Assembly: GCF_007655135.1 (NCBI RefSeq)
Contig: NC_045131.1
Span: forward strand, 28,442,001-28,506,000
Length of the DNA: 64,000 nt
Direction: 5' to 3'
Origin: Punica granatum
Lineage: Eukaryota > Streptophyta > Magnoliopsida > Myrtales > Lythraceae
In this document: positions 8,225 to 53,387 of the stretch, one piece after another
How the letters are laid out: each line of letters opens with the position of its first letter
How positions within the stretch are numbered: the stretch's first letter is position 1
Translations under genes and position numbers: made by a program
The notes under the pieces: model-generated
Database searches by the model: none
What the model was told of the DNA's origin: nothing
The model's input: the letters and a program-made list of their open reading frames with translations, nothing else

Positions 8225-8228
8225 AAAT

Positions 8229-11200: not shown

Positions 11201-11450
11201 CATGTCTTCGTTCCTTTTCTTTCCTTAACTTTCTCTGTCTCTCTTTCTATCTCTTGCTCTGTTTTCTTCTTCAGATTTTCCAGCCCAAAACGAAAATCAA
11301 AATAAGGAAAAGAGAAAAGTCAATGGCGGTGGATTTGGGGTGAGCTGGGGGAGGAGATGGGAAAGAATGTCTGGCCACGTGGGGCCCTTTAAAGCCTTTC
11401 TTTATCTTTTATCTTTTTTTTTCTTTTTTTTTTCGTTTTTAAACTCACCA
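8229..11450 (-). mobile_element. Family-L LTR L4 (right LTR of the L3/L4 element)
   Basis: It starts TGTCACGACCCGAAATTTC and tracks L3 closely to about 11360. It then continues with the 'GGCCACGTGGGGCCC' and poly-T stretch seen in complete copies ('CCACGTGGACCCC' at 38600), and decays by about 11450 without the expected GGTCTCACA end. No target-site duplication can be assigned. Short frames around 10971-11195 repeat those in L3 and are non-coding. Confidence 0.7.
9087..9290. repeat. 39-bp minisatellite, about 5 units
   Basis: Same unit family as 5096-5330, one unit shorter. Confidence 0.95.
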
Positions 11451-17038: not shown

Positions 17039-18839
17039 TGTTACGACCCGAAATTTCAGCTGAATTTTCCCTATATTTTCTCGATATCCAATACCACATA
17101 ACTATTCATATATAACCAGCTTTCCATAAGCTCCCAAAAATATATAACCAATCTCGCAAGCTCTAATATATATATACATTTCAAAAGAGAGTAATTTTCT
17201 TTTCTTAACCAATCACTAAACCAAACTAAACAAAAATTTCAGATCGTAACATATTCAAATGCATTCTATATAAAAAGAATATCTATCAAATAACTAAGAT
17301 CCCTACCTCGTTCTCCGAGCTGATCCCCGATGTCCAAAAAGGTTCTCCTGTGCAGCTATAAACTTATCTGAAAAAATATATGCAGAGTGTGAGCTGCATC
17401 TCAGTGAGTATTATATTCCAAAACAAAATGAATTATTATTAAATAAATACTTAATAACTAACAACTAAATATTCAAATAAACAATACAATCACATCCAAT
17501 TCGACTATCCACTCACTCGCACACATATACGGTGCGTGTATATATATATATACATATTATATAAAAATAATTTTATCCAATATAATAACTAAATTTAAGT
17601 CCTACTAACAAATACACACAACTCTTCCAACCATTTCTCTAATATCCAATAGCACATAAACATCAACTATCCATTCATTTAGCGTTTCAAGAAAAGTCAC
17701 TACACAATCATTTAACAAATCAAGTTTCTGCAACAACACGATTTTTACCTAACCTCAGACAATTTCAACAATTATCATATCTCAAGCAATCAGACAAGAC
17801 AAACAATATACAACAAAACCAACCAATATAGTCATAGAGTCGCATTTCCTTGCAATAAGTTAGAACGGAACTATGACCCCTCACATCTCATTCAGGCCCA
17901 TTTTTCTATTCCGTCGGGTTTAACGGCCATTCAAGCCCCATTTTCTATTCCGCCGGGTCCAGCGGCAATTCGAGCCCTACTTTCTATTTCGCCGGGTCCA
18001 GCGACCATTGGGCCCCATTTTCTATTTCGCCGGGTCCAGCGGCCATTTGTGCCCCACTTGCTATTCTGTTGGGTCCAGCGGCCATTTGTGCCCTACTTTC
18101 TATTCCGCCTAGTCCAGCGGCCATTTGTTCCCCACTTGCTATTCCGCCTGGTCCAGCGACCCCATGGCTATAATCAAGCAATATCAATATATACAAGCAC
18201 AATCCAAATCACATTACAATGGTATCACATTATCATCACATATGTCATACACAATCAACATACACAATCATATCGCATATCTCAAGTCAAAATGAAACAT
18301 AAAAGGGCAATAACTCTCATATTATTTCACACCACATAGCAAGACTAATCCTTTAATCTAACTATTACAATATTCTTCTTAAATAATTTATATAATTATA
18401 ATACATCAATTCACAAGAGAAAAGAGTATTCACATAATATATATATGTGTGTGTATATATATATAAATATATCATTTCACAATGTAATGAAATACTCACC
18501 GAACTTCCAATATAATATTTAAGAAAGACGAGCCTTCAGAATGCAAAGTTCCAATCTCCTCAACTCCTATAAATCATAAGCATAGCAAGAAAAACAATTC
18601 ATAGAACACATTAATTTTATCGATAGGTATCACATCACCTAATCACATCCCCATGCCCTTAAAAGATCAAAGGTGCCCAAAATTTAACCATGCTAATTGA
18701 AACAGCCACTACACGTTCCATACAAAAGAATCCAACCCATAAAGTAAGATCAGCCAATAAGTCAACTTCTTATAGCAAATTCCACCCCAACATATATTAC
18801 AATCTAGTTCATTAAACTACATTAACTTATCTAAACTGG
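17034..18839 (-). mobile_element. Family-L solo LTR L7, left part, with target-site duplication
   Basis: The LTR starts at 17039 (TGTTACGACCCGAAATTTC), preceded by TCACG (17034-17038). Its right end GGGTCTCACA is at 38745 and is followed by TCACG (38746-38750). The perfect 5-bp duplication shows one insertion into L6. Without the nested 18.7-kb element the LTR is about 3.0 kb. It includes a minisatellite at 17895-18165. No internal region or second LTR exists, so it is a solo LTR. Confidence 0.9.
17895..18165. repeat. Minisatellite of L7, about 7 units
   Basis: Units of about 37-38 bp (TATTCCGCCGGGTCCAGCGG then CCATTTGTGCCCCACTTGC), a subfamily of the 39-bp unit. Confidence 0.9.
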
Positions 18840-21800
18840 TGTCAGCACCCCATTTTGGTCCGCCAGCTCCGACAGAGGACTTCTGACCAAAGCCCGGGAC
18901 ACTATTCAAAAATCGAAAAACCGAAGGCGAACGTGCGGGCACAGAGTCATGAATGACAAGAGAAAAGCTGGATCCACTAGGAGAGCATGAGAGGGCAGTC
19001 AGAAGAGTAAACAAATGACGAGCCCCGAAGAAACAGTAGCTGGTATTGTGACACTATTCATCACCGAATCACCGAAGTATTGAAAGGTGCCCAATGTGGG
19101 ATTCTAAAAATCCCTCTCAATGCCAAAGTGGCCAATGACACGCTCGGGCGCGTTTCGGAGGCATCTTGCTTAAGCCGGGACGCCCCCGAACTCTCGCGGA
19201 CGCCTTTTCTGACTGGGCTCCCGAGCGCCCGATCCACAGACAAAGTAAACGGCACCCGGAAACGGGCCTACAAGCACCCAGGGACCACCGGGATCACAGA
19301 AATAGCTTCAGATGACCTTTCGGAACTCGACATGGTTTCCCGAGGGACGTTTCAGTGGTCACAAACGCCTCCCGACGAGTCTTCGGGGCACATTCATGGA
19401 AAACAGAGATCACAGCGATCCCTGAACACCTCGAGACATTCGGGAAACACTGAGAAAGCCCCAGTCGCAAGTCCTTAAGTCTCCCCCCGGCTAACGGTCT
19501 TCGGTCAGAGACGGCGAGCCAACGATCCCGCACGGGACAAAAAAATTCACCGAGACGAACACCACAATGCACAAAGGAGAAATTGGAGAACGGGGACGGC
19601 TAATTCCTCTCCGAATGCCCAAACAGGGCAAAACCGACTCTCGAGGCGCCGAGTCACCCGAACATTCAGTCACATGACATATGGCGATATTAGGCTTATT
19701 CAAATTCTCTTTGTTCAAGCATTCTAAATCTATTAATTAATCGGACATCAGAGATCGGACGCTCGTTCAATCAAGTCTCAAGCTTTTCTCGACTTTCTCT
19801 TAGTCGAATGGGACCCACAGCTCAGCCAAGCCAAGCCACCAAGCCACGGATCAAACCCAAGATCTCGGCTCAATCCCCAAACCGCGGCTTGGCCACAATT
19901 AGCCCCAGCTCAACCCCAAGGCCGGCGGCTCCAAGCTTCAAGAAGCTTCCCTCTACCACCCATTTCAAATATCTTCTTACACACACTCACATCTATCACT
20001 TCCCATCACCTCCCATCACTCTTACTCTTGCTTCCCCTACACTCTAAGTGACCATTTCCCCTCCCTAATCCCTTCTTGAAATTCGGCAGCCCACTAAGTC
20101 CCTCCAAAGCACACTTAACTTCCTCTAATTGTCCCATTAGTCTTCCCTATAAGTTTCAATTCATCATTAAGCTTAATCACTTCTTCAACTTCACACTCTC
20201 TCAAGCCAACATCTCTCCAAAAACCTCTCAAGCTCCAGCCCTCTCCCTCACTTTCGTCCAACCCTTACCAAGGACGATACCGGCCAAAATCACCGGAAAA
20301 CCGCCCGGTATTCCGGTAACCATCCGACCCGACTTAAGCCAAAAATTACCAAACTCCCTAGTCTACATATTTCCCACCCCCTAAGTCCATTTCCGGGCTT
20401 AGATTTTCCATTTGAAGCCTCCAACATCACGTTCCAGCCGTGAAGAGAGTCGGGTCCCGATAACGTTACCCGCGCGCACCCGGATTTTAACAACGTGCCA
20501 TTTCCTCCCACGACTTTGCGGAGTCGTGCCATCACGTTCAAAGGGCTCCTCATAACCCTCACCCTCCCCCGTGAAGATGTGGTCACGGTCCGGGGGCCGA
20601 TCCACCGTGCACAACCATCGTTCCACTCGTTTCTTCTTTATCGGGTCCACTTGATTTTTACCGAGCTTTTTCTCACTGTTTCGAGCTTGTTCAGGGTTTG
20701 GCACGTTCGGGACTATCCACGAACGTCTAGATCTATCTCTTAGGAGTCCAACGAACCCGATCTTGCATCGTACCGTGGTCGGAGCTAGCATGCTGACCCC
20801 GTTCTTCCCAAACTGCCGCTGCCGCCACCTCTCGGGTACCCGCCACCCGTAGCGTCCAGCCGAGTCTCGCGACTCCCAAGGCCATTTCCCCAACTCTTTC
20901 CCTCGTGCATCGAGGCTAGGTAACATCCCCCTACGACTTAGAGAAGCTAGGATCCTCGATGTTTGCTTATATGTTGTGTTAATATGATTCAAAAGGGGCG
21001 GAAAGCATGAAAACGTTTATTTTCCTTTAGATCCGGATTCCCATGCAAGCCATGCATCGCCACGTACTTCATTTTCTTTGTTATGTCCATATGTCGTATA
21101 AACATGCATGCTTAACATGAAATGGTCCGAATCTAAAAGGATGAGATCGATATAGACTCGAGAGAGTCATGGAGTCTCTCGGCCGAACCTCATAGGGGGG
21201 GTCGTGAGCCTCTTTGGTTCTCTAGGGTCCATAACCCTCTCATCCTTCCGGATTGAGCCATCTCCACGGTCGTGACGTCCCTAATCGTGATTGAAATGTG
21301 ATTACATGAGGGGAAACGGTTCGGATCTAGAGGAATGAGGCCGGCATGGACTCAAGAGAGCCATGGAACCTCACGGTTAGACCTATGCGGTGAGCCGTGA
21401 GCCACCTTGGCTCTCTCGGGTCTATGAGGACCTCATCCTTCCGGATCTAATCGTTTCCGTGTTCGTGACGTCTATCCGTGGTTACAACATGTCGGCACGA
21501 TGGGAAATGTCTGAAATCTAGGAAAGAGAGGTCTCACAACCTCGGTTGCACCAAGAAGGACCCGCGGCCATCTTCCACGAAAGAGGGCCGAGAGGCTCCT
21601 TGGTTCACTCGAAGTCGTGGACCTCTTATCCCATGATTCCGGATATTTCCCGTGATTTGTCTTTTGGTTTGTTATTGTATGAGTCGACGCCGTTTTTATC
21701 GTTTCCCTTAAACATAATGCTTGTGTTTGCTTCACGTGTTTGTTCGCGCATCCGAAGTCATAACGGCGTCGCTTTATTGAATATTCGCATCATCGACATC

Positions 21801-22115
21801 TATGGTGTATGAAGCATGTAAGAAACGATTGAAATCGGCGTAAGAGACCATCTAAGATTCGGGTTTGAGCCAAGGAAGCATTCGGCTACTTCCTCCGGGA
21901 TATGGCCGAATGCCCCGTGGCTCCCTTCGAGTCTAGGCTAGTCTCTTCCTCCGCTTGGAAGTCGGTTCTTAGAGTTGTGTGTAATTGTACTTTTCGTTTA
22001 ATTGTCAATCATGTATTAATTATTTATTAGACGTGCTAGTTCCGGATATCGCCCATCAAAACCGTAACCGCAATGTGGAACAATAATCATCGAAGAATCT
22101 CACAAACGGGAAAAT
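18840..22115 (+). repeat. 5' LTR of the Ogre-type element, 3' end deleted
   Basis: Collinear with the 3' LTR (32367 onward) until 22115, where the 3' LTR continues for another 1.93 kb (35588-37516) but this copy jumps directly into ORF1 coding sequence. The lost stretch includes the LTR end and the primer-binding site. A 197-codon minus-strand frame (20399-20992) recurs in the 3' LTR, but I see no known domain in it. Confidence 0.92.
21122..21972 (+). other. Row of four long imperfect hairpins in the 5' LTR
   Basis: Four inverted repeats in series: H1 21122-21263, H2 21312-21458, H3 21500-21654, H4 21818-21972. In H2, GGAAACGGTTCGGATCTAG at the left pairs with CCGGATCTAATCGTTTCC at the right. 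In H4, GTAAGAAACGATTGAAATCG pairs with the arm ending AAGTCGGTTCTTAG. Secondary inner stems (for example CTCAAGAGAGCCA with TTGGCTCTCTCGGG in H2) make each nearly a full-length hairpin. H1-H3 also share sequence with one another. Confidence 0.85.
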
Positions 22116-22735
22116 GGTACCGGTCATCCCCCCTCCCGAGCGCAACTTTTTGGAATGGAGGCACTTTTGGCGCGAGTTGACGCCCGCGCGGTTCCTATGG
22201 GTCGCCCGATGAAATCCCAACGGCCCCATGATCACAGGGTGTCTCGGAATCGTGGGAGTCCCTCTTCTTAGCCACTTGGGGAGCACGCTCATATTCCCCA
22301 GCCGGGTAATCAGACAACTCGGCGGCTTACAGGACATTCCCGCCGAGGCGGACCGCCTACCCTACCGCATTCAGTGGGCCGACTCTACATCCACGGCCCC
22401 TGCAAGATTCCTGCAGATCCGGGAAATCCACCGTCAGCGGGACGCTAGCACCATACAGCGCCTTTACTTCCCTGAGCATCCCACCGACGAAGAGCGAGCA
22501 CTTTCCGCCACATCAGCATATGTGGCTCAGTTCTATTCACAGGGATCGACGTCGCCGCAACTATCCCAGACCACCCCGACTCCCCGAGCTACACCTACCC
22601 CCGCTCCCGAAGCCGAAAGTTCCACCCAAGCGGCAATGCACGTGCTCAAGTCGCACACTTAAACAGGGAGATGGCCCGTTTGGGCGCGACGTTGGACCGA
22701 GTGCATGCAAGGGCGCGCGAGATCTCCCATCCCTA
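22116..22735 (+). pseudogene. Ogre-type extra ORF upstream of gag (DUF7745-like), truncated
   Basis: The reading frame is entered directly from the truncated LTR, so the N-terminus is missing. The frame contains FLEWRHFWRELTP, then MITGCLGIVGVPLL and HLGSTLIFPSRVIRQLGGL, which I recognise from plant retroelement ORF1 proteins (DUF7745 type, function unclear). A TGA at 22210 stands where relatives have Trp. A frame change near 22640 moves the C-terminal helix (NREMARLGATLDRVHARARE) into another frame, which stops near 22733. Elements of this lineage are known to carry such an ORF ahead of gag. Confidence 0.7.
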
Positions 22736-23049
22736 GGACTAGTGGGCGCACCCATTTTTGCCCTCGCTCGGACCTACGCCGCTCTCAACCGGCCACCGAG
22801 CGCAAAAGGATGTCGGCTTACGCTTATGTTCCTTTTCTTTCGTGCGTTGTATTTTGTAAAAACTATGGAACTCGAATCGATTCAATGTAATGACATTAGC
22901 GTTTTGAAAACCCATGCATCTCATAACATCCTGTTCTTTTATTATTCCACACTTATCGTTCAAAATGTCGACGTTGTCCTTACACATTCTTGGAATTCAG
23001 GTGATCGCAACTGGCGTCACACCGATACCCAACTCGTCAACGTGTCAGG
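22736..23049 (+). other. Spacer between ORF1 and gag
   Basis: About 310 bp with no conserved protein; short frames only. It plausibly holds the untranslated leader of gag. Confidence 0.4.
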
Positions 23050-25287
23050 ATGGCGGAAGAGGACCGTGTCGATATCTCCGAGGAAGACAATCCACCGGCC
23101 CCGGTACATTCTCAGCCGCCCCCGACGTATGCTCCACCACCTCCGACTCTTGCGGGCGTACTTCAAGCGTATCCAGGCGCCCCTTCGACGCATCTCCCGC
23201 CCCCGACGTCTTCAGGGGTGCCCCTCCAACGAGTCTGACTGACGTCGTCCACCTCCGACGACCATGCTCGCATCACAGCACTTGAGGGCACAGTCAACCA
23301 ATGAGCTGCGAGCATGACCACTAACATGGCGGAGTTGTTCGCCCTACTCAGAGGACCGAACCGCGCATCCTCAAGCTCCACACCACCTTCGGGACAAGGA
23401 CCCATAGCCGACCCGACATCTTGGATTCCGCCAACTCTAGTTCCGGAAAACACTAATGTTCCCGCACCACCAACGGCGCACACGGCCGCGGCTCACCCAT
23501 TTACCATTCATTATCCAGCACCACCGACCCCCGCGCCCATCCCTCTTCCGCAGGCGGCATTCCTCACTTCGGACCAGGTCCTATCCTCGCCGCCACCTGT
23601 TCCCATGCCGGCCCTAGCTGTAGCCTACACCGTCCCTCCGCCGACAGTTTTTCCGACGCCAAGCGCACCTGCTTCGACTCACCCTTAAGCCGCAGATCTT
23701 CCCTCCTACCCGCCTCTACAACCTCACACCAACTTCCCCTACCAAGGACCGCCGCCCATAAACACTACTTTCCTCGAACCAGGCACGCCGACTCACGCGG
23801 CCTAGTTCGCCTCACCGACTCACTTTTTCGCCGAGGCTGACACCGAGCAGGAGCGAAGACTCAAGAGAATGGCAGAAACGATACAGACCCTACAGGCAAG
23901 TGAGACTTGACCTGATGCGCGCTACGGCGACTGTTGCCTATTCCCGGGCATGCGACTACCGTCGAAGGTCAAGATCCCGGAGTTCAGGATTTACGAAGGC
24001 ACAATGGATCCGCGGCACCATCTCCGCCACTACCAGGGGAAGATGCTACAATATTGGGACCATGAGGAGTTCGTTATCCATTCATTTCAAGACAGCCTAT
24101 CGGGATCCGTACTCGATTGGTTCATGTCTCTGAAGGCCGAGGACATTCCAACTTGGGCGGACCTTTCCCGAAAGTTCATCAACCAGTACCAATACTGTGC
24201 GGAAACGCCTCCGACCCTCTTAGAGCTGAGCATGAAAGAAATGGGGCAAGGCCAAAGATTCGTGGAATATGCCACCAAATGGCGCGCCCAAGCGGCGAAG
24301 CACATCCCTCCGATCAGCGAAGTGCAACAGATCCAGCTGTTCCACTCCACACTGAGAGGAGTATATTATTCGCATTTATTGGCCCACACCTCTTCATTCT
24401 CCGATCTCATCGAGGCCGGGAAAAAGCTTGATTTGGGCATTAAGCTTGGCAGGATGGAAGGCCCCACCGGTAAAGGAGAAGAACCCTCGAAGAAGGCCCC
24501 TGGGACGACGACGTCTTCCAACGGAAGGAGAGGGAAGGAGGTTTCAGTTAACGCCGTCAATCCTGCACATCCAACGCCCCAACAATACTCGACGAACGTC
24601 ACGACTGCACCCCCCGTGGTCCCCACCTATGCTCCGCAATATCGGCCTCAACCCCCTACCCAACCGATCTACTATTCTGCACTACCACCTCCACCCCCAC
24701 CTACGGTACCGTCGCCCGTTGTCCACCACTATACCCCTACTCCACCCCAAACCCCTCAATACCAACCCCCGGCTCCGAGAGTTTCTCAGCCAACACAACG
24801 AGTCCCACCCCCGCAAGGTCAACAGGGCGGTGCGGCACAACCGCGACCCCGCAGGCAATACCCGTCCCTACCGGTCTCGCTTTCCCACATTTACCAACAA
24901 ATTCGCGACAAGATCGCACTCGGCCCGAATCTCGATCCAACCATCCAAGATCAAAGCAAGCAGTGTGAATATCATCAAGGCGCGCCGAGGCACATCTTGA
25001 ATAATTACTGGAAGCTACGGGAGAGGGTCCAGGAGATGATCGACGCAAAAGAGCTCGTGTTCAATGCTGTAAGATCTCCGAATGTACAAGCTAATCCCTT
25101 CCCCGACCATAGACCGGCTCGGGGGTCCTCCGTCAACATGATCAGCATATGCGCATTAGGGGAGGGCGAAAGCGAGCAAGGTTGCCCCTCCCCCTTCGTG
25201 ATTGAGTACGTCCCCGCAGGAACTGCAGTTGGGTTCGCCGGGATTGACGCATCCCCTGCCCCGTTCGTCATAGATATTCCCTCCTGA
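23050..25287 (+). pseudogene. Gag of the Ogre-type element, with several in-frame stops
   Basis: A single frame from ATG 23050. The first 300 codons are proline-rich and interrupted by stops at 23236, 23302, 23686, 23803 and 23908. The capsid-like retrotransposon gag domain lies at about 23980-24465 (motifs IPEFRIYEGTMDPRHHLRHY, LDWFMSLKAEDIPTWADL). A proline/glutamine-rich linker follows, then a zinc-knuckle-like CEYHQGAPRH segment in which the last Cys expected by family pattern is Tyr (NYW). The frame ends at a TGA (25285) that continues in frame into protease, so gag-pro was probably one polyprotein. Structural protein of the intracellular particle; this copy cannot encode it whole. Confidence 0.85.
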
Positions 25288-26705: not shown

Positions 26706-26917
26706 GTAAGATTTATCTATGTAGAAGATGTTTCCCGCGTGTCGGCGTAACCATAGGCCACACGGCGGAAGAGGGATCTCTGTTATGGTTTCACGATTCA
26801 GACTATCAATGAAATCCCTACATGCATTTTTTGAATTCCTGCGTGTTTTACCCTCTTTCCCTATTATTTTGTTAGCAACGTTCTAAATTGTCTAAAACAA
26901 TTCTTTCAATTTCCCAG
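26706..26917 (+). other. Probable intron between protease and reverse transcriptase
   Basis: Donor GTAAGATTT at 26706 and acceptor TTTCAATTTCCCAG ending at 26917, 212 nt, T-rich before the acceptor. Removing it joins the protease frame to the pol frame without a shift (one codon is split). Without removal, TAA at 26707-26709 ends the protease product. A spliced intron at this place is a described trait of Ogre elements. Splicing here is predicted, not shown. Confidence 0.7.
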
Positions 26918-29900
26918 GCTCCACTCCAATCCAAATCTTCGACACGTCAATTCGAACCTACTCGAAGAATGTCTCGGAGAGCTCGGACCCATATACTTCG
27001 AGAAGGGGCTCGACGAAGACAGTCAAGTGCCTGAGATAGAAAAGAGTTTGCACCACCTCGAAGATCGCCAGCTCACCTCAGTCGAGCCAACGGAAGAGAT
27101 TAATGTGGGCACCGAAGATGAGCCCCGCACCTTAAAGATTGGCACGGGCCTCGACCCAACGCAACGAGCCCGGATGATCGACTTCCTAACAAGATACCAA
27201 GAAGTCTTTGCCTAGTCCTACGCCGACATGCTGGATCCAGACCCATCGATGGTCAAGCACTTCCTCCCGCTAGACACTGAGAAGTTCCTGCCCAAGCGGC
27301 AGCAGTTACGACGGCAACGGGCAAGCCTCCTCCTCCGCATCAAAGAGGAGGTTGTCAAGCAGATCAACGAGGGTTTTCTTGAAGTTTGTAACTATTCCGA
27401 ATGGGTGGCAAACATTGTGCCAGTAGAAAAGAAAGACGGGAGGGTCCGGGTTTGCGTCGACTACCGAGACCTCAACAAGGCTAGCCCCAAAGACAATTTT
27501 TCCCTGCCCCACATCGACATACTAGTTGACAACACGGCACGCCACACCCAATTATCCTTCATGGATGGCTTCTCCGGATACAATCAAATTCGGATGGCCG
27601 AGGAAGACAAGATCAAGACGACGTTCACTACGATGTGGGGAACCTTTTGTTACCGCGTCATACCTTTCGGCCTCAAAAACGTCGGGGCAACTTATCAGAG
27701 GGCTATGGTCACATTGTTCCACGATGTGATGCATAAAGAAGTCGAGGTCTATGTCGACGACATGATTGCCAAGTCCAAAGAAGGAGAAGATCACCTCGTC
27801 AACTTGAAGCGTCTTTTTGACCGTTTAAAAGGGTACAAACTCCGGCTTAATCCGGCAAAATGCACGTTCGACGCCCGGTCGGGAAAACTGCTAGGATTCG
27901 TGGTCAGCGAGCGCGGTATCGAGGTAGACCAGGATAAAGTCAAGGCAATGAAAGAGCTTCCTCCGCCGTCGTCGGTCCATGAAGTACGAGGCTTTCCAGG
28001 GCGATTGAACTACATCGCGCGATTCATTGCAAACCTGACAGACAAATGCCAACCACTCTTTCGCTTGCTCCGCAAGAACGCGGCGATCGAATGGAACGAA
28101 GAATGTCAGAAGGCCTTCGACACCATCAAGGCATATCTGGTTCAACTGCCTGTATTGGTTCCGCCTACACCAGGTCGCCCCCTCATACTTTACCTAACTG
28201 TACGTCGACAATCATTGGGATGCATGTTAGGGCAGGAAGAGGAGTCCACACACACGAAGCACGCAATCTATTATCTGAGCAAAAAGTTCACCGACGGAGA
28301 GTCCAATTATCCGGAAATCGAGAAGATGTGCTGTGCATTGGTGTGGGTCATGCAGAGACTCCGACAATACACGCTCTATCACACGATTTGCTTGCTGTCA
28401 AAGACGGATCCCTTGAAGTATTTGCTTGATAGCCCGTCCTCCATGCGGAACATCGCTAAATGGCGTTGTCAATTAACGGAATACGACATTGAATATGTGT
28501 CCCGTACCTCGGTTAAAGGGCAGGCGATCGCGGATCATTTGGCAGAATTCCCAATTGAGGACAACACGCCTATCGACCCCAACTTCCCAGATGAAGGGAT
28601 TCTTCAAGTAGATGATGAGGGGGAGAAGTCGGGGTGGAAGATGTACTTTGACGGTGCCGTCAACTCCATGGGGTCCGGCATCGGCGCAGTGCTAATATCA
28701 CCGGACGGACGCTACTACCCGGTGGCGGCAAAAATTGATTTTCCATGCACCAATAACGTGGCCGAGTACGAGGCATGCATCCTCGGTTTACAAGCGGCAA
28801 TCGACTTCAAGGTGAAAGAGCTAGAAGTATTCGGTGACTCTATGCTCGTAATCTTCCAAACATTGGGGCAGTGGAAGACAAAGGATGCAAAGTTGGTGCC
28901 ATACCACGAGTACCTCGAGAAGTTAGCGGAGAATTTCGAAAACATCTCGTTCACTTATACCCCACGCATGACAAATCAGTTCGCAGATGCGCTTGCAACG
29001 CTCGCCTCCATGGTGAGCATCACGAGGGAAAACCTTATCGAGCCCCTCGAAATTGAGATAGCCGAAGGACCGGTGCACTGCAACGCAATCGAAGTGTCCG
29101 AGGCAAAGCCGTGGTACCAAGACATTTAGAATTTCTTACGAACAGGCCAATACCCTCCTTTCGCGGACCGTCGCAATCGAAAGACGCTCAGATACCTCGT
29201 GATACGCTATTTTTTTAGCGGTGAGATATTTTACCGCCGTTCCTTTGACCCCACTCTCCTCCGGTGCATCGAGGAACACGAGTCACGACGTCTCATGGAG
29301 GAAGTGCACGGGAGAAATTGTGGACCCCATATGAACGGTCTCATGCTCGCTAAGAAGATTATGCGCTTAGGCTACTATTGGTCCACCATGGAGACTGATT
29401 GTGTGAAGCATGTCAGGCATTGCCACCGATGTCAGGTCTACACCGATCAGATCAAAGCGCCGCCCAATGAACTACGCCCCATTACGACACCATGGCCTTT
29501 CTCAATGTGGGGAATGGATGTTATTGGCCCGATCAACCCTAAAGCGTCTAACGGACATATGTTTATCTTGGTGGCAATTGATTACTTCACCAAATGGATC
29601 GAGGCTATCACTCTCGCGTCGGTCACTGCAAAAGCCGTGGCCCGTTTTCTCAGGCGTGATGTCATTGCCCAGTATGGAGTCCCGGTAACGATCATCACGG
29701 ATAATGCCAAGAATTTGAACAACAAAGTCATCGACGAGCTCTGTGCCCAATTCAAGATCCAGCATCGCAATTCCACCCCATATCGTCCACAAATGAATGG
29801 TGCGGTGGAAGCTGCGATCAATAACATCAAGAAGATCATTGAGAAAATGACAGTGAATTACAAGGACTAGCACGAAATGCTCCCTTACGCTCTCTTGGCA

Positions 29901-32366: not shown

Positions 32367-34592
32367 TGTCAGCACCCCATTTTGGTCCACCAGCTCCGAC
32401 AGAGGACTTCCGACCAAAGCCCGAGACACTATTCACGATCGGAAAACCGGAGGCGAATGTGCGTGTATAGAGTCATGAATGACAAGACAAAAGCTGGATC
32501 CACTGGGAGAGCATGAGAGGGCAGTCAGAAGAGTAAACAGATGACGAGCCCCGAAGCAACAGTAGCTGGCACTGTGGCACGATTCATCACCGAAGCATCG
32601 AAAGGTGCCCAATGTGGGACTCTAAAAATCCCTCTCGGTGCCAAAGTGGCCAATGACACGCCCGGGCGCGTTTCGGAGGCATCCTGCTTAAGCCGGGACG
32701 CCCCCGAACTCTCGCGAACGCCTTTTCTAACGGGGCTCCCGAGCGCCCGATCCATAGACAAGTAAACGACACCCGGAAAGGGGCCTACGCGTACCCAGGG
32801 ACCACCGGGATCACAGAAAAAGCTTCAGATGACCATTCGGAACTTGACTTGGTTTCCCGAGGGACGTTTCAGTGGTCACAAACGCCTCTCGACGAGTCTT
32901 CGGGGCACATTCATGGAAAACAGAGATCAGAGCGATCCCTGAACACCTCGAGATATTCGGGAAACACTGAGAAAGCCCCAGTCGCAAGTCCCTAGGTCTT
33001 CCCCGGCTAACGGTCTTCGGTCAGAGACGGCGAGCCAACGATCCTGCACGGGACAAGAAAATTCACCGAGACGAACACCACAATGCACAAAGGAGCAATT
33101 GGAGAACGGGGATAGCTAATTCCTCTTCGAATGCCCAAACTGGGCAAAACCGACTCTCGAGGCACTGAGTCACCCGGACATTCGTTCACATGACATATGG
33201 TGATATTAGGCTCATTCAAATTCTCTTCGTTCAAGCATTCCAAATCTATTAATTAATCGGACCCGGAGATCGGATGCGCGTTCAATCAAGTCTCGAGCTT
33301 TTCCTGGCTTTTCTCTTAGTCGAATGGGACCCACAGCTCAGCCAAGCCACCAAGCCACGGCTCAAACCCAAGATCTCGGCTCAACCCCAAGGTCGGCGGC
33401 TCCAAGCTTCAGGAAGCTTCCCTCCACCACCCATTTCAAATATCTTCTTACACACACTCACATCTATCACTTCCCATCACCTCCCATCACTCTTACTCTT
33501 GCTTCCCCTACACTCTAGGTGACCATTTCCCCTCCCTAATCCCTTCTTGAAATTCGGCAGCCCACTAAGTCCCTCCAAAGCACACTTAACTTCCTCTAAT
33601 TGTCCCATTAGTCTTCCCTATAAGTTCCCACTCATCATTAAACTTAATCACTTCTTCAACTTCACTCTCTCTCAAGCTAACATCTCTCCAAAAACCTCTC
33701 AAGCTCCAGCCCTCTCCCTCACTTTCATCCAGCCCTTAACAAGGCCGGAACCGGCCAAAATCATCGGAAAACCGCTTGGTATTCCGGTAACCACCCGACC
33801 CGACTTAAGCCAAAAATTACCAAACTCCCTAGCCTACATATTTCCCCCCTCCCTAAATCCATTTCCGGGCTTATATTTTCCATTTGAAGCCTCCAACATC
33901 ATGTTCCTGCCGTGAAGAGAGTCGGGTCCCAATAACGTTACCCGCGTGCACCCGGACTTCAGCAATGCGCCATTTCCTCCCACGACTTTGCCGAGTCGTG
34001 CCATCACGTTCAAAGGGATCCTCATAACCCCCACCCTCCCCCGTGAAGAGGTGGTCACGGTCCGAGGGCCGATCCACCGTGCACAACCATCGTTCCACCC
34101 GTTTCTTCTTTATCGGGTCCACTTGATTTTTACTGAGCTTTTTCTCACTGTTTCGAGCTTGTTCAAGGTTTGGCACGTTCGGGACTATCCACGAACGTCT
34201 AGATTTATCTCTTAAGAGTCCAACGAACCCGATCTTGCACCGTGCCATGGTCGGAGCTAGCGTGCCGACCCCGTTCTTCCCAAACTGCCGCTGTTGCCAC
34301 CTCTCGGGTACCCGCCACCTGTAGCGTCCAGCCGAGTCTCGCGACTCCCAAGGCCATTTCCCCGACTCTTTCCCTCGTGCATCAAGGCTAGGTAACATCC
34401 CCCTACGACTTAGAGAAGCTAGGATCCTCGATGTTTGCTTATATGTTGTGTTAATATGATTCAAAAGGGGAGGAAAGCATGAAAACGTTTGTTTTCCTTT
34501 AGATCCGGATTCCCATGCAAGCCATGCATCGTCACGTACTTCATTTTCTTTGTTATGTCCATATGTCGTATAAACATGCATGCTTAACATGA

Positions 34593-35444
34593 AATGGTCC
34601 GAATCTAAAAGGATGAGATCGATATAGACTCGAGAGAGTCATGGAGTCTCTAGGTCGAACCTCATAGGGGGGGCCGTGAGCCTCTTTGGCTCTCTAGGGT
34701 CCATAACCCTCTCATCCTTCCGGATTGAGCCATCTCCACGGTCGTGACGTCCCTAATCGTGATTGAAATGTGATTACATGAGGGGAAACGGTTCGGATCT
34801 AGAGGAATGAGGCCGGCATGGACTCAAGAGAGCCATTGAACCTCACGGTTAGACCTATGCGGTGAGCCGTGAGCCTCCTTGGCTCTCTCGGGTCTATGAC
34901 GACCTCATCCTTCCGGATCTAATCGTTTCCATGTTCGTGACGTTTATCCGTGGTTACGACATGTCGGCACGATGGGAAATGTCTGAAATCTAGGAAAGAG
35001 AGGTCTCACAACCTCGGTTGCACCAAGAGGGACCCACAACCATCTTCCACAAAAGAGGGCCGAGAGGCTCCTTGGTTCACTCGAAGTCGTGGACCTCTTA
35101 TCCCATGATTCCGGATATTTCCCGTGATTTGTCTTTTGGTTTGTTATTGTATGAGTCGATGCCGTTTTTATCGTTTCCCTTAAACATAATGCTTGTGTTT
35201 GCTTCACGTGTCTGTTCGCGCATCTGAAGTCATAACGGCATCGCTTTATTGAATATTCGCATCATCGACATCTATGGTGTATGAAGCATGTAAGAAACGA
35301 TTGAAATCGGCGTAGGAGACCACCTAAGATTCGGGTTTGAGCCAAGGAAGCATTCGGCTACTTCCTCCAGGATATGGCCGAGTGCCCCGTGGCTCCCTTC
35401 GAGTCTAGGCTGGTCTCTTCCTCCGCTTGGAAGTCGGTTCTTAG
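34593..35444 (+). other. Row of four long hairpins in the 3' LTR
   Basis: Counterparts of H1-H4 at about 34593-34735, 34784-34930, 34972-35126 and 35290-35444, with the same arms and a few substitutions relative to the 5' LTR. Confidence 0.85.
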
Positions 35445-37250
35445 AGTTGTGTGTAATTGTACTTTTCGTTTAATTTTCAATCATGTATTAATTATTTATT
35501 AGACGTGCTAGTTCCGGATATCGCCCATCAAAACCGTAACCGCAATGTAGAACAATAATCACCGAAGAATCTCACAAACGGGAAAATTGGACGTGTTATT
35601 CGATTAATTAAACTACTTGGACTAAATAATTGGATAAATTGATTATTAATTCGTAAGCGCGTCGATGGCTCACGGAACGGCGAGGATGCCCTTTTCCTTA
35701 AAAAGCCCACAATTTTAAAACACCGAGACGCGTAACACGAATAGAATCGAGTCTAGCGAGTACTCGCATGCCAAGACTTGAGTTTGGGCCCAATTTGAGG
35801 CGGCTCGAGTCGAGACACTCGAGTCCTCCCTAGACTTCTTCGTGTCACACGATCTTCAATTTAAGCACGAACATCACATGTTTTATTATCCAAGGGCATA
35901 ATCGTCATTCCGAGATTCACCGATATCCTAGGCGTTAGGGAGTCGGAAACGCCTCGATCTATGGGCGAGAAAGGGTAACCCATTCGGGGCGAGTTTCATT
36001 CGTATGGCCCGTTCTGTTCATTTTCGGTGTTTCTATCTTCCTATCGTAGATTCGGTGGTGAACCTTTTATTTCAGTTACAAAACACGAAGAACCGAATTA
36101 ATCATGCACTTGACTTAAACGAACATTAGATAACGGATAGGTGGAATGTTAGATTCCAATCTAGAGTCAAAATACGAGTTTGGCTAATTCGGTGAAACCA
36201 CAGTGTTACCTCACTGAATAAGAGTCTTAAAACAAATTCACATATGTAATTGGCTTAGAACCATATTCCAGCCCACCTCTTTGTTTGCCTAGGTTAGATA
36301 CATTGTTTGCTAATCAACCCCGGTCAATAACTGATTAAATCACGTACATTAGACTTAATATACAACTTGTTTGTATTTATCTATATTTGTCAGTTATTGT
36401 CTGTTTTTCATCAGTTTTATCAATTTTCTTCTGTTTTCCATTTGCTTTTGCTAATTTGTTGCGGTTCGGGTCCGAGCCCATAGGTTACGTGTTGCACGGG
36501 GTCCAACGGCCCAAATCACCGAATACGAGGTCCAATGCCTCCTAATTCACTGAGCGCGTGCAACCCGAGTGCGGAATGAGATCTAGCCTCGAGTCACCAT
36601 CACATTTCAAATATGGCCTATGCGGAAGGCAATTTGGATTGGATGTGTAAACGTGTTTAGATATCATCCGGGAGCTCGATTGGTCCAACGGTTACAGTGG
36701 GAACTAATCGGTTCTCTTGTAAACCGCCGGTTCGATCGAACCCGACCCTCGGCTCCTTGAGCCCGTGTTGCCTTAATTTATTTATCGGTCATTCAAAACA
36801 CACGGTGAGCCGGAGCGAAATATTGGCCCAATGCAAACCGATCGGGATCCATTTACTTTATTCAGTTGTACTTTGTAATTATTCGAGTGTACATTGTGAG
36901 GATCTTATTTGTACATCTATTCATTCATTTGTAAGGATCCCCGATCGGCAAGTGAGAGGTCCGAGTGTCGAATCGGTTAAGTTGGTCTATTAATGCCTAG
37001 AGACGAGTGAGCCTGAATACTCGTGGTTTCGGTTCACGCAGGGAGTCGACCGCCGTGGTTTGACGAACTATAAACGTTAGGATAGTGAACCAATTCCTCG
37101 ACGCACAAGCCTACTCATCTTTCGGGTTCTTGGCCCAACTTGATCAATTCATCGACTTTACGGTGTCAAAACGGGCGAGTCAAGTGCAACCCTAAATCAC
37201 GTGGTAAATAAACAAAACGGCAAGCCTAGCAAACTAGAGTACCGAAAGGG

Positions 37251-37273
37251 CGTGCGGGATATAGGCCCGCACG
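37251..37273 (+). other. Compact hairpin near the LTR end
   Basis: CGTGCGGG, loop ATATAGG, CCCGCACG: a perfect 8-bp stem. It is conserved at 53107-53129 and, with one compensatory pair, at 63114-63136 (minus). Confidence 0.85.
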
Positions 37274-37521
37274 TAATAGAACCCCCGAATTCGTAATTTT
37301 CGGTTCCGTATGACCATTGCCTTAATATTTAGGTGTACCTTGTACCCCTAGACCCGGGCGACTCAACGGCCCTCGACCTACGGGTCGTAAACAGTAAGTG
37401 GCGACTCCTTCTCACGTGCGTCCGTCTGCGTCCCCGGGAACGTGGACACTCCCAAACCGCGTTGCATAGGCTTCGCACATGTGTGCCCTGAAGAGATTGA
37501 AATTCGGGTGCGCATAACTGG

Positions 37522-41451: not shown

Positions 41452-44798
<3,347 letters not shown>

Positions 44799-48911: not shown

Positions 48912-51900
48912 CTGTGTCAGCACCCCATTTGGGCTCACCATTCCAAATAACGATATCAGCAATGGTCCAAACTATGACTTGAGCAGGAATACAGAAAATG
49001 GCTCGGCAGAGCAAGAAATCACTATTCATCCTCAAGTCGGCAAAATTGAGCAGAAGACATGTACATGCGACAGAAGGACTCCAGGGGTCACCAAAGGGTA
49101 ATAGAGTAACTAGAGAGCTCAACAACGTCCAAAACCGGCATTTCCAGTGTACCACATGGACAATCCTATTTTTCGATAGTTCGCTCGACCGTCGGAAGAT
49201 AGCCAATATTGGATTTCAAAAATCCACATCAATGCCAAATAGATGAAAAGTGTCTTCAAATACATTTCGCAAATCATCTACTCTATACAAAACAACTTTC
49301 TGTATACAGATAACTTTTCAGTGGAAGTCCAAAAATGCCGGTTTCTCGGAGAAAAATTAATTCTAAATATCAGATGCGGCCATACCCCACAATCATACAG
49401 AGCACGAGCAGTGCTTCAGATTGTCTTTTGAAAGCCATACAGACACCCCCAATGACTTCCGAGCGACAAAACGGGCATACCCCTCTTCGGAAGAGCATAA
49501 CCGGAGACCGGTCTGATGAAATAACGGCAAATGAAGTTTACCCTATATTGCCCTAAAAACTCCAGCGAATAGACGCAATTGGGCAAATCAGACAGCAAAA
49601 CCCTTCTCGATTTCCCGAGTAACCTCCGAGAAGCACAAAAGGCCATTTTCAGTGAAAATCCATATCCGGAGGTTTTCTTTGGGGAAACTTGACGCCGGTT
49701 GCCTACCTTACACAGTGCTGGCCTTCTCAAGGCTCGATGTGGAATTGTCGGAATGAATCACACAACTCATCTAGACCCCCTGAGCAGTGCTTTAAGAGTC
49801 TCAGATGCACTTTTCATGTCCTTAGAGGCCTAATCTCAACAAAAAGAGATAACAGTGATCTCCGAATCGCCCAAGCAACTCAGAAAGCAATCTGAGAAAT
49901 CCAGTTTCGGCTTCCTAGGACATCTCCGGCTCCATATTTGCATTACCGGCTTAAGGGTCAAGTGCCCACGTAATTTGACAATTTATATCAAAATGATCGA
50001 CGTGGGATGCAGATACGAGATATGCTGTCAGAAGTGGGTAACCTCGCTCTGAATGCGTAAAAGGAGCAAAACCGGCTTTCGAGCCTCATACAGACATTTG
50101 GCAATTTCTCACGAAAAATATCAATCTCGGACTCATTAAATCCGTTTCCTCGCGTATATCGATAATTCGACGTTCAATTAGAACCACGAGCTTCGAATGC
50201 GGGATCAATCGAGGCCCAAGCTTTCTCCCGGTTTCTCCTCTTCGGTCGTGGGACCCACGGGCTGCCCAGGATGAGTCACCCCTTGCCCTAGAAGTTTCGG
50301 CTTCTTCTTCTTCAATGCAAGAAGCCAACTTGCACTCTTGCATGAAAATATCCAAGAAGTTTGAAGACAACACTCAAGCCTTCATCAATGCTCTTGGCTC
50401 TTCCACATGAATGATACTTGGCTCACATTCATCCTCATCCTCATTAGTTGGCCGAAATTTGCTAAGCATGGGGGTTAAGAGCACTTGCTTTTGCTAATTG
50501 TGTCATTAGTTTTGCCTATAAATTGTCCAAAAGTGATTAAGTTAATCACTTCTCTTCTTGCACACTCTCTCCAAGCTTTCTCCCTCAAGAAAAGCTCTCA
50601 ACTCCATAGCCAAAACCAGCAAGTTTCAACACTTCAAAACCAAGAGAGAAAAATCGAAGAAAACCCGAAGAAAGCTTTGAGTTTCTTAAGTCGGAAGCCG
50701 ATGTTCATCATCCCGACTTAAGTTCAAAAATTCTCAAACTCCATGGACCACATGTTTTGGACCCAAGGAGTTCATTTATGAATTTAGATTTTTGGTTTGA
50801 AGTCATTTGCTCATCATTTCAGGTCATTTAGGTGATTTTGAATGAAGAACGTGCTCTCGGGTGAACAGTACACCCGTAGCCGCACAACCGCGCACAGCCG
50901 TGCGCCCTACGCGCCCTTCCTTGCCGGAACGTGCATCCTTTGCACCCGAGCACCCTTCCCAGCGTTCAATCGAGTCACCCGACTCTCGAACACTTCCCTG
51001 ACTCTTTCCTCGTATCCCGAAGCTAGGTAAATCACTCTTGACTTAGAGGAGTTAGGGCTTTTTACATTTATTGCATGTTCATGGAGTTATATGGTGCACA
51101 AAGTGTGTTCACTTGTAAGACTTCATTTTTATGCACTTTTACATTATATCATGCATGTTTATCCTTGATTAACATGTCAACATGTCGGGAAACACTTGGA
51201 TCGTAGTTAAGAAGAACATCCCGGCCCGGGAAAGGCAAAGAGCTCACGGGTTGCACTCCAAAGGAGGTGGCCAAATGCTCTCTTGCTCTTTTCGAGTAAG
51301 GAACGATCTTCTTGACCCGATCCAAGTTCGATTCCCGAGTTTCCTCGTGTTTTCCCGCATGCATGAAGTCAGTATTGTTTTATCGATTCCCTAAATAACT
51401 TGTTTGTGCATGTTTGCATGTTCGAATGCGTTATTCAAATCATGGCAATACCGACTTTAGTTTAATCGTGTCATTTATCGTGTTTGTCGTTTGAGCATGC
51501 GAGAAATGATTCAAAACAAGACATGGAAACCTCGTGGAACCTAATACGGGCCATGAGACCTCTTGGCTTTCTCCAATGAGATTTGGCCGAGAGTCTCATG
51601 GAGTTATTCAGGTTCCATGAGGCTTCCTCCTCCCGTTTTAAGTCCGTTCTCGGATCCCGTGCAATTTGCAAGTTTCTTTACATCAAGAACCTCACATTAA
51701 ATGTCTTTCAAACAAACATGCATGGATTCGAATATCGATGACTTATTTGGGTTCATTCGGTTATAAGGGTATTTTTGGTTATTTGACCAAATTATCCTCG
51801 ATCCTTATGAAACCATCTCAGTTATCGAATCACAAATCGTTTTCACAATTAATGCATTCGGCAATAACCTTGAGCATTAATTCCACGAACGGGTTAATCG

Positions 51901-53387
51901 GGACACTCACACGGTTAATTCATTCAACTTTAAACAACTTTGCACGAATTGGACATTAATCTGTAACTCGCATCGACGAATTACAAAACGGTGTTAATGC
52001 CCTTTTCAAAACCCTCATACTTTCAAATCCGTATTGTGTCGTTTCCCTTTTCTGAAAAAAAATTTTCAAATCAAGGGCAAGAACATCATTTTGTGATTTG
52101 GCGTCATCTTAGCATTGTTTAGGTGCTAGTCGGGTATTTTGTATCGAAAATACAATTACCTGACTAATCATTTTACTCGACTTAACCAAATACTAGAAAA
52201 TGATTAGGTGGAACTCTAGGTTCCAAATCTAGAATCAAAACACGAGTTGGGTTAATTCAGTGGTAATTCAGTGTCACAACACCGAATCACTGTAAAAGCA
52301 ATCCACACACATAAAATTTGATTACGGATATCTTGTTCGTCAGGTTCTCAAAAGCAATGCCGAATGCTAAATATTTTGAACATGATTGCTTGCTTAGGAT
52401 ATGGCATTTGCCTGCAAAAACACACTTGGATTAATAAACTTGTTAATCCACGTACATTCGGTGAATACAAACATATTGTCTGTTATTTACCTGTTGCTTG
52501 TTATCTTTCCGCACTTGTTTGCCATGCGGGTCGAGCCTGATCCCTAGGCCGAATAATATTAGGGTTCAACGCCCTAATCATCAATCACAGGGTTCAACGC
52601 CCTAATCAACACTCACAGGGTCCAACGCCCTATTCAGTGAGAGCGTGCATTGAATTTCAGTTTTTCGGTGTTTCCCTAAACTCACGGTGAGTTAGAGTGG
52701 AATAATAACCGAACGCGAGTCGACTGGAATTCAGCCATTTGTAATTTGTATTTATTGTTTTCGAGAGCATCGTAAGTACTTTTATTTTGTACATTCATTC
52801 TGTAAGAATTCCAGTCGGTAAGCGAACGGTCCGAGAGTCGAATTAATCGAATCGGTCCAATGCTTGCCCAAAGAAAAGTAAATCCAAGAACTCGCGGTTC
52901 TGGTTCACGCAGGGATTCAACCTTCATGGTTCGATGATCTGTAACGCAAGATTGTGAACCAACTCCCCGACATATGGGTTTACTTCTCTCTCGACTTCTC
53001 AACCGACATCGAATTTACGGTGTCAAAACGTGCGAGCCGAGTGCAACTTAATTCATGCGGTAAATAATAAAACATGCAAGCCTAGCAAACCAGAGTACCG
53101 AAAGGGCGTGCGGGATATAGGCCCGCACGTAACATGAACCCCCGAATCACGATTTTCCGATTCCGCATAGACCAATGCCTTAACAACAACTAGGTGTTCC
53201 ATACCCCTAGACCTCGGGTAACTTATCCGCCCTCGACCTTCGGGTTGTAAAATGATAAGTGGCGACTCCTTCTCTCACGCGTGTCCGTCACGCGTCCCCA
53301 TGGGAAGGTGGACACTTCCAAGCCACGCGATCCAAAAGCGCGCATGCGGACCCCGACGAGAGTCCACATTCGGGTCCGTACACTCTG
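48912..53387 (+). mobile_element. Solo LTR of an Ogre-related family, 4.47 kb
   Basis: LTR 48917-53382 starts TGTCAGCACCCCATTTGGGC and ends CCGTACA, flanked by CTCTG at 48912-48916 and 53383-53387. The first and last few hundred bases are recognisably homologous to the LTRs of the 18.8-kb element; the middle is diverged. It carries two hairpins (51186-51653), three copies of GGGT(T/C)CAACGCCCTA (52560-52640) and the compact hairpin (53107-53129). No internal region, so it arose by LTR-LTR recombination. Confidence 0.92.
51186..51653 (+). other. Two long hairpins in the solo Ogre-related LTR
   Basis: S1 51186-51337: ACTTGGATCGTAGTTAAGAA pairs with the right arm TCTTGACCCGATCCAAGT. S2 51500-51653: CATGGAAACCTCGTGGAACC pairs with GGTTCCATGAGGCTTCC, extended by outer stems (AGAAATGATTCAAAAC with GTTTTAAGTCCGTTCT) and an inner CCATGAGACCTC/GAGTCTCATGG stem. 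S2 corresponds in place and shape to H4 of the large element. Confidence 0.8.

What the first reader, a model, noticed from the sequence alone, without database searches (positions are those of the whole stretch)
21122..21972. Four consecutive long hairpins in a retrotransposon LTR
Seen directly: four imperfect inverted repeats of 142-155 bp lie in series inside the Ogre-type LTR, each with extended outer arms and further inner stems, so each can fold almost end to end. The same row is in the 3' LTR (34593-35444). H1-H3 share arm sequence, so they look like repeated copies of one hairpin. I know of no description of such a row in Ogre LTRs. It could be a structured RNA (packaging, translation, small-RNA source) or a DNA feature.
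Basis: seen in the sequence. Interest (0 to 1): 0.82.

Follow-up and report, generated by a model that had tools for sequence, protein, structure and literature searches.

The report
Conserved hairpin row in retrotransposon RNA
A plant jumping gene in what is very probably the pomegranate genome carries a row of large hairpins in the leader of its RNA, and the pairing has been kept across many diverged copies, which points to an unrecognised working part of the element's RNA, though what it does is untested.

Summary
In detail: H1-H4 fold better than shuffles and are the only strong folds of the 5' LTR. The 3' LTR really runs 32367-37516 (TSD ACTGG); the 5' LTR is cut off at 22115, so the row lies mid-LTR. 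In the host genome (sizes match Punica granatum 'Tunisia'), 37 fetched relatives and a diverged solo LTR in the window repeat the plan: one to four ~190-bp hairpin units, ~320 bp to H4, often 420 bp to H5. Pairing exceeds neutral simulation (H4 88% paired; simulated 62-74%, 0/300 per setting), with compensatory changes clear in H4, weaker in H3. A conserved TATA box lies upstream; a conserved 5'-splice-site-like sequence precedes the row and an acceptor-like site precedes gag; ATGs are dense in the row. I propose structured cis-elements of the unspliced genomic RNA (packaging, dimerisation or export). Conservation of structure is well supported, the leader intron is predicted, the function inferred. 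Evidence for RNA over DNA from strand asymmetry is weak; the ribosome-shunt layout was not found conserved. My searches of open papers found no description.

The parts
18835..18839 (.). 5' target-site duplication ACTGG
   Evidence: sequence; matching copy
18840..22115 (+). 5' LTR, truncated: about 1.93 kb of its 3' end, the PBS and the 5' part of the internal region are missing
   Evidence: identity to the 3' LTR stops at 22115/35587, while the 3' LTR continues to 37516
20148..20153 (+). TATA box in a block conserved with the solo LTR (50517); transcription start inferred near 20180
   Evidence: alignment; start site inferred from TATA spacing, no transcript data
20882..20968 (+). conserved block with 5'-splice-site-like AGGCTAG|GTAA; GT at 20920-20921
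   Evidence: GT kept in 37 of 37 sequences with the block, AGGT in 36 of 37; sequences
21122..21268 (+). hairpin H1 (unit 1)
21312..21464 (+). hairpin H2 (unit 2), strongest fold
21505..21655 (+). hairpin H3 (unit 3)
   Evidence: pair counts on 33 copies; simulation
21673..21783 (+). spacer with a small stem between H3 and H4
   Evidence: arms I6; a stem in the equivalent spacer of the solo LTR
21840..21980 (+). hairpin H4
   Evidence: pair counts on 36 copies; simulation
22979..22983 (+). CTTAC, branch-point-like
   Evidence: present in 24 of 25 copies
22998..23000 (+). acceptor-like CAG, about 50 nt before the gag start
   Evidence: YAG in 23 of 25 copies
23050..23052 (+). gag start codon (ATGGCGGAAG), first ATG after the predicted acceptor
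   Evidence: no ATG between in 20 of 21 copies where it was located
27216..29870 (+). RT, RNase H, second (aRH-type) RNase H, integrase
   Evidence: Pfam
32367..37516 (+). 3' LTR, 5150 bp
   Evidence: starts TGTCAGCACCCC, ends before ACTGG TSD
34594..35452 (+). H1-H4 of the 3' LTR
35690..35900 (+). hairpin H5 of the 3' LTR
   Evidence: aligned in 33 copies
37207..37212 (+). only AATAAA of the 3' LTR; if it is the poly(A) signal, the row lies in R
   Evidence: role inferred
37517..37521 (.). 3' target-site duplication ACTGG
48915..53382 (+). diverged related solo LTR, TSD CTCTG on both sides (48910-48914, 53383-53387)
51185..51350 (+). its single unit hairpin J1
   Evidence: (-72.9 kcal/mol)
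51495..51660 (+). its H4 counterpart J2, about 320 bp after J1
   Evidence: (-77.8 kcal/mol)

Best explanation
The row is a modular array of 150-215-nt hairpins in the transcribed leader (probably the R region) of an Ogre-lineage Ty3/gypsy element. Shown by computation: the hairpins recur at fixed spacing in related LTRs, and pairing has been kept while sequence changed. Predicted: a splice donor about 200 nt upstream of the row joins an acceptor just before gag, so the row, the PBS and ORF1 lie in a ~5.3-kb leader intron and stay only in unspliced RNA. Inferred: the hairpins act in the unspliced genomic RNA as a cis-element that marks it for packaging, dimerisation or export as genome rather than as gag-pol messenger, with tandem units giving repeated binding sites.
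For: Architecture kept in 37 fetched relatives: unit spacing 180-210 in 31 of 37, 300-330 gap to H4 in 30 of 37, 400-430 gap to H5 in 23 of 37; solo-LTR family: unit hairpin in 34 of 37, H4 counterpart in 37 of 37, 310-325 bp apart. H4: 88.3% of cells paired, 105 double-change cells against 57.7 +- 7.2 shuffled, 0/500. Neutral simulation from a fully paired root never reached the observed pairing with the one-sequence structures (H4, H3; 0/300 in each of 8 settings), and in 9 of 10 settings for five hairpins with support-chosen pairs, 1/400 in the tenth. Widely shared variants break pairs less than private ones (40 of 103 against 135 of 223, p = 3e-4). Conserved TATA upstream, donor-like site in 37 of 37 with GT, acceptor-like YAG in 23 of 25 and CTTAC in 24 of 25. 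ATG density 0.46 per 100 nt before the donor against 3.22 after it in 35 of 40 sequences. Order LTR start, TATA, donor, row, LTR end, PBS-like TGGCGACTCC, ORF1, acceptor seen in 3 of 4 long loci.
Against: No transcript, splice junction, RNA structure or Gag-binding data. GU-over-AC excess, expected if + strand RNA is selected, is modest in the H family (1201:842, base composition alone would give 1.18), absent in the solo-LTR family (532:556) and not significant for shared variants (46:31, p = 0.11). H3 covariation is weak (cells paired no better than shuffles, 83/500). In one search two measures lie below the shuffles (pairs with a double change 13 against 18.0; further pair types 47 against 58.6). 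On a tree, internal changes keep pairs more than tip changes, but slid controls give similar keep ratios. ATG sparsity before the donor is mostly compositional: not below dinucleotide shuffles in LTR1 (2 against 3.2) and none in the solo LTR (5 against 3.3). Two of the three well-ordered long copies (L083, L084) have AAG instead of YAG.
Confidence: 0.4

Rival explanations
1. Translation control: the hairpins make scanning ribosomes jump (shunt) or stall so that ORF1 or gag can be reached through an ATG-rich leader.
For: The row region is rich in ATGs, above dinucleotide shuffles (LTR1 34 against 22.6), so scanning through it is implausible; caulimovirus leaders solve this by a shunt (PMC5902531, passages).
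Against: The defining layout, a short uORF ending just before the stem, was found in 4 of 36 copies (the stem base is poorly defined there because the arms run to nearly the whole 220-nt window). A predicted splice offers a simpler way to gag.
Confidence: 0.15
2. The stems help splice across a ~5-kb intron by bringing donor and acceptor together, or regulate how much RNA stays unspliced.
For: The row begins about 200 nt after the donor-like site and lies wholly inside the predicted intron.
Against: Not tested; compaction would not by itself demand fixed spacings of 190, 320 and 420 bp.
Confidence: 0.15
3. A DNA-level feature (cruciform, protein-binding palindrome) or a mutational process in which one arm is copied onto the other keeps the arms complementary without any RNA function.
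For: GU and AC occur about equally in the solo-LTR family and in shared variants the excess is not significant; some pairs switch GC to AU without visible intermediates.
Against: Since insertion, 12 stem differences between the two LTRs include no double change, 7 keep and 5 break pairs (small numbers). H4 shows many GU and few AC intermediates (9.9% against 3.1% of cells). Private variants break pairs freely.
Confidence: 0.15
4. Small-RNA source or decoy: long hairpins are diced into siRNAs, as a host silencing trigger or an element-made distraction.
For: Long hairpins of this kind are Dicer-like substrates; structured LTR regions of maize Sireviruses attract small RNAs (PMC10760457, passages).
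Against: No small-RNA data here; the arms are imperfect; the only Rfam near-matches are microRNA families far below their gathering scores. A trigger for silencing would be selected against, not kept.
Confidence: 0.1
5. Chance or neutral leftovers of inverted duplication.
For: H1, H2 and H3 are duplicates, so their folds are not independent.
Against: Shuffles, architecture conservation and neutral simulations.
Confidence: 0.04

Closest known systems
Caulimovirus (CaMV, RTBV) pregenomic RNA leader stem-loop (PMC5902531, passages read)
   Same: A long, ATG-rich, strongly structured leader of a reverse-transcribing plant element; stem-loop bears packaging signal; splice donor and poly(A) signal lie in the same leader.
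   Different: One large stem-loop with a uORF before it and a shunt landing site; here several separate hairpins in series, donor upstream of them, no conserved uORF.
Retroviral packaging signal downstream of the major splice donor, and RNA export elements CTE/RTE (PMC1363727, start of abstract in listing; rest recalled)
   Same: Multi-stem cis-elements kept only in unspliced RNA, if the predicted intron is real.
   Different: No binding or activity known here; far larger (about 0.85 kb for the row) and repeated in tandem units of variable number.
Palindromic clusters in maize Sirevirus LTRs (Bousios 2016; paper not held, seen only as cited in PMC10760457)
   Same: Strong predicted structure inside the LTR of a plant retrotransposon.
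   Different: Those are Ty1/copia palindromic motifs described as a cis-regulatory region; here 150-215-nt hairpins downstream of the TATA box with fixed spacing and compensatory change in a Ty3/gypsy Ogre.
BARE distinct RNA pools and splicing (PMC3735527, passages read)
   Same: A plant LTR element separating messenger from genomic RNA, with splicing.
   Different: Ty1/copia; no such hairpin row reported in the passages I saw.
Known Ogre intron between GAG-PROT and RT (PMC6317226, passages read; original papers not held)
   Same: Ogre transcripts are known to be partially spliced.
   Different: The known intron lies within the polyprotein region; the one predicted here lies in the leader and spans the row, PBS and ORF1.

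Membership tests
Ogre lineage (Tat clade, Ty3/gypsy) | second (aRH) RNase H between RNase H and integrase | tested here: met
   RVT_1, RT_RNaseH, RVT_3 at 478-596 of ORF 27216-29129, integrase in the next ORF
Ogre lineage (Tat clade, Ty3/gypsy) | extra ORF before gag, often plant mobile domain | tested here: met
   ORF1 fragments of relatives L083 and L084 match DUF7745 (E 9e-18, 6e-19), plant mobile domain below its cutoff in L083; the window copy has lost the start of ORF1
Ogre lineage (Tat clade, Ty3/gypsy) | intron between GAG-PROT and RT | not tested
   gap 26334-27216 between ORFs noted but not examined
Ogre lineage (Tat clade, Ty3/gypsy) | 5-bp TSD | tested here: met
   ACTGG / ACTGG; related solo LTR CTCTG / CTCTG
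Ogre lineage (Tat clade, Ty3/gypsy) | lineage-typical PBS | tested here: inconclusive
   TGGCGACTCCACTGGGGA follows the LTR end in L083-L085 (one or more base changes in L083, L085); tRNA not identified; absent from the window copy
Caulimovirus-type ribosome shunt | short uORF ending just before a stable stem | tested here: not met
   4 of 36 copies
Retroviral-type packaging signal | structured region absent from spliced RNA | tested here: inconclusive
   donor- and acceptor-like sites conserved; no junction data
Retroviral-type packaging signal | binds Gag and is needed for packaging | not testable with these tools
   needs bench work
Structured RNA element under selection | compensatory changes beyond neutral expectation | tested here: met
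   H4; H3 pairing kept but covariation weak
Any Rfam family | match at the curated score | tested here: not met
   20800-22120: three weak matches, all far below gathering scores

The most novel reading that the evidence does not exclude
Ogre elements carry a modular, expandable RNA 'genome tag': a tandem array of large hairpins in a leader intron that also contains the PBS and ORF1, so that splicing makes the gag-pol messenger and removes the tag, while RNA that escapes splicing is recognised by the hairpins and becomes the genome. Array length (1-4 units) would then be an evolving packaging-strength dial in one host genome.
Probability: 0.25. Interest if true: 0.85.

Novelty: new variant of a known kind. 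Interest (0 to 1): 0.62.

Why it matters
How plant Ty3/gypsy elements decide which RNA is translated and which is packaged is largely open. A conserved, modular structure placed after a conserved donor in a high-copy family gives a concrete, testable candidate, and public pomegranate RNA data could test the splice and small-RNA predictions at once. It would also show that very long LTRs, often treated as filler, can hold selected RNA architecture.

Tried and rejected
Chance folding: rejected. LTR ending at 22115/35587: rejected, since identity stops there only because the 5' LTR is truncated; the 3' LTR runs on to a TSD. Folding with a 220-nt span limit over whole loci gave domains everywhere and was not informative; I used inverted-repeat scores with shuffled controls instead (null mean 44.8, sd 10.7, maximum 86 of 637 windows). 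A first z-score scan timed out and was replaced by a composition regression. RNAalifold consensus on the mafft alignments was poor, so structures came from one sequence or from pairs supported by at least 35% of copies (this choice favours kept pairs, hence with the one-sequence structure). Ribosome shunt: layout not conserved. Plant relatives in viral contigs: none; no other species' copies were available, so conservation is within one genome and copies are not independent. Rows dropped: alignment of H4 used 36 of 40 sequences (without L018, L022, L044 and the solo LTR) and of H3 33 of 40 (without L026, L027, L028, L031, L044, L045 and the solo LTR) because they were truncated, near-identical or poorly matched; the ATG count used 35 of 40; donor count 37 of 40. 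Fetched: 37 of 38 strong non-window places, 36 of 39, 24 of 39; each search scored only 40 of 551, 2385 and 631 candidates.

Full report
Observation. The four inverted repeats are real. Against 300 dinucleotide shuffles each they score z = -3.8, -10.6, -4.5 and -3.8 on the + strand and -2.6, -8.0, -7.6 and -5.3 on the - strand. In a scan of the whole window the eight best of 2554 position-strand scores belong to H2 in both LTRs, H3 of the 5' copy, and a hairpin at 51501-51650; H1 and H4 score -4.3 to -6.0, and nothing else in the 5' LTR is below -3.0. H1 and H2 are a diverged tandem pair 193 bp apart; H3 is related to both, H4 more distantly.

Where it sits. The identity of the two LTRs stops at 22115/35587, but that is not the LTR end. 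The 3' LTR runs on to 37516, where it is followed by ACTGG, the same five bases that precede the 5' LTR at 18835-18839. The 3' end (36018-37516) aligns with the end of a second LTR at 48915-53382, which starts with the same TGTCAGCACCCC and is flanked on both sides by CTCTG, so it is a solo LTR. The 5' LTR of the window element is therefore truncated, having lost about 1.93 kb, the PBS and the start of ORF1. The row lies 2.3-3.1 kb into a 5.15-kb LTR. Pol order RT, RNase H, second RNase H, integrase and an ORF1 with DUF7745 in relatives place the element in the Ogre lineage as that lineage is defined in PMC6317226 (passages).

Host. The assembly has 320,430,517 bases in 474 contigs. The eight largest contig lengths seen add to 296.85 Mb with C1 at 55.56 Mb; the listing of PMC8007985 gives 296.85 Mb on eight chromosomes and 55.56 Mb for chromosome 1 of Punica granatum 'Tunisia'. 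I take the host as pomegranate; no gene was used to test this.

Relatives. A search with the row scored 40 of 551 first-look candidates, 72-100% identical; one with the solo LTR's hairpins scored 40 of 2385, mostly 87-93%. I fetched 37 and 36 of these. An inverted-repeat scan (null maximum 86 in 637 shuffled windows) shows the same plan measured from a conserved block at 20882-20968: unit hairpins 180-210 bp apart in 31 of 37 loci, a 300-330 bp gap to H4 in 30 of 37, and a 400-430 bp gap to H5 in 23 of 37. Peaks missing at the threshold account for the rest. Unit number varies: one in the solo-LTR family (34 of 37 copies show it, 37 of 37 show the H4 counterpart, 310-325 bp apart), two (for example L014, L019, L045), three (LTR1 and many), four (for example L010, L020, L024). 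So a 190-bp hairpin module is gained and lost while spacing is kept.

Selection on pairing. On 36 copies of H4 the structure folded from one sequence (44 pairs) is formed in 88.3% of cells; 105 cells differ from the commonest pair on both sides, against 57.7 +- 7.2 in shuffles (0/500), and the covariation score is 0.329 against 0.268 (0/500). Pairs such as columns 79/139 (GC 20, AU 15, none broken) and 67/150 (AU 20, GC 14, 1 broken) are clean. Slid structures pair 31-54%. Two measures run the other way: pairs with any double change (13 against 18.0) and further pair types (47 against 58.6) are below the shuffles. H3 (33 copies, 59 pairs) is 90.2% paired but hardly above its shuffles (90.0; 83/500), with 28 double-change cells against 18.4 (5/500). 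Independent folds of the copies share 24-40 of 44 H4 pairs. Neutral evolution simulated on the trees from a fully paired root gives 62-74% for H4 and 76-84% for H3, never reaching the observed 88.3 and 90.2% in 300 runs of each of eight settings. With pairs chosen by support, five hairpins exceed all or all but one of 400 runs. Variants found in one or two copies break pairs in 135 of 223 cases, those in four or more in 40 of 103 (Fisher p = 3e-4; H4 alone 4 of 28 shared). Parsimony on a tree agrees for the real pairs (internal 42 kept, 16 broken, 25 restored; tips 32, 29, 4), but slid controls have similar keep ratios, so I give that test little weight. Between the two LTRs of this insertion, 12 stem differences comprise 7 that keep and 5 that break pairs and no double change.

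RNA or DNA. If the + strand RNA is selected, GU should exceed AC. With symmetric scoring the H family shows 1201 GU to 842 AC (102 hairpins to 36), base composition alone giving a ratio of 1.18; the solo-LTR family shows 532 to 556. In the aligned sets H4 is 9.9% to 3.1%, J1 5.7 to 2.9, J2 4.7 to 3.8, H5 6.5 to 4.3, and H3 6.3 to 8.4. Shared variants: 46 to 31, p = 0.11. I read this as a weak lean to RNA.

Leader and splice model. A TATA box at 20148 lies in a block conserved with the solo LTR, so transcription should start near 20180 and the row lies about 0.95-1.8 kb into the RNA. The block before the row has AGGCTAG|GTAA; GT is kept in 37 of 37 sequences and AGGT in 36. Before gag, 25 copies show CTTAC in 24, YAG in 23, and no ATG between it and the gag start in 20 of the 21 where that was located. 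In three of four long loci the order is LTR start, TATA, donor, row, LTR end, PBS-like sequence, ORF1, acceptor, giving an intron of about 5.3 kb; the fourth (L082) matches only from the LTR end on, and L083 and L084 have AAG at the acceptor. ATG density is 0.46 per 100 nt in the 500 nt before the donor and 3.22 in the 1000 nt after it (35 of 40 sequences). The sparsity is largely compositional (LTR1 2 against 3.2 in shuffles; L083 1 against 3.4; L084 0 against 2.5; L085 1 against 4.4; solo LTR 5 against 3.3), while the row has more ATGs than shuffles in each of the five tested (34 against 22.6, 32/22.3, 29/23.2, 34/24.8, 30/20.8). The only AATAAA of the 3' LTR is at 37207; if used, the row is in R and present at both RNA ends.

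Mechanism. Shown: conserved structure and spacing. Predicted: leader intron. Inferred: the hairpins serve RNA that escapes splicing, as a packaging, dimerisation or export element; repeated units would multiply binding sites. Rivals are translation control (shunt layout in 4 of 36 copies), help for long-range splicing, DNA-level palindromes or arm copying, and small-RNA production.

Known or new. Rfam gives nothing at its cut-offs. Eight full-text searches of open PMC papers listed no title or abstract start describing such a row in Ogre LTRs; subscription papers, including the original Ogre splicing papers, were not available, so it may be in print elsewhere. The nearest precedents are the caulimovirus leader (passages), Sirevirus LTR palindromes (as cited), and BARE RNA pools (passages). 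I rate it a new variant of a known kind: a structured leader of a reverse-transcribing element, in an unusual modular form.

Noticed in passing
window 4230-7412 and 8225-11367: Another LTR-like pair, 95.8% identical, with only about 0.8 kb between the copies and 39-bp minisatellites inside; related fragments start at 1426, 2298, 17040 and 46235.
   Followed up: no
window 31725-32134: 40-bp tandem repeat, 10 copies, shortly before the 3' LTR, like the variable 3' UTR repeats recalled for this clade.
   Followed up: no
window 18840-22115 against 32367-35587: The two LTRs diverge unevenly: 1.6-4.4% per 250 bp over the row, 2.4-8.7% over the rest. Chance, recombination and conversion were not separated.
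   Followed up: partly
window 37219-37277 and 53075-53135: The strongest conserved stretch near the LTR end contains a perfect small hairpin (GTGCGGG...CCCGCAC) just after the AATAAA.
   Followed up: no
window 7120-7330 and 11060-11280: Purine/pyrimidine-rich inverted repeats near the ends of the other LTR pair, unrelated to the row.
   Followed up: partly
window 61540-61720: AT-rich inverted repeat with about 40-bp arms, possibly a small DNA transposon; part is similar to 40663-40781.
   Followed up: no
window 41810-43012: ORF with B_lectin, S-locus glycoprotein and PAN domains, a lectin receptor-kinase type gene.
   Followed up: no
window 62869-63784, - strand: 3' end of another related LTR; its hairpin region would lie beyond the window end.
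   Followed up: no
L082:1-6128: An element sharing LTR end, ORF1 and gag start but with a different LTR body; it has inverted-repeat peaks at 770, 960, 1310, 1590 and 4400, perhaps a further diverged row.
   Followed up: partly
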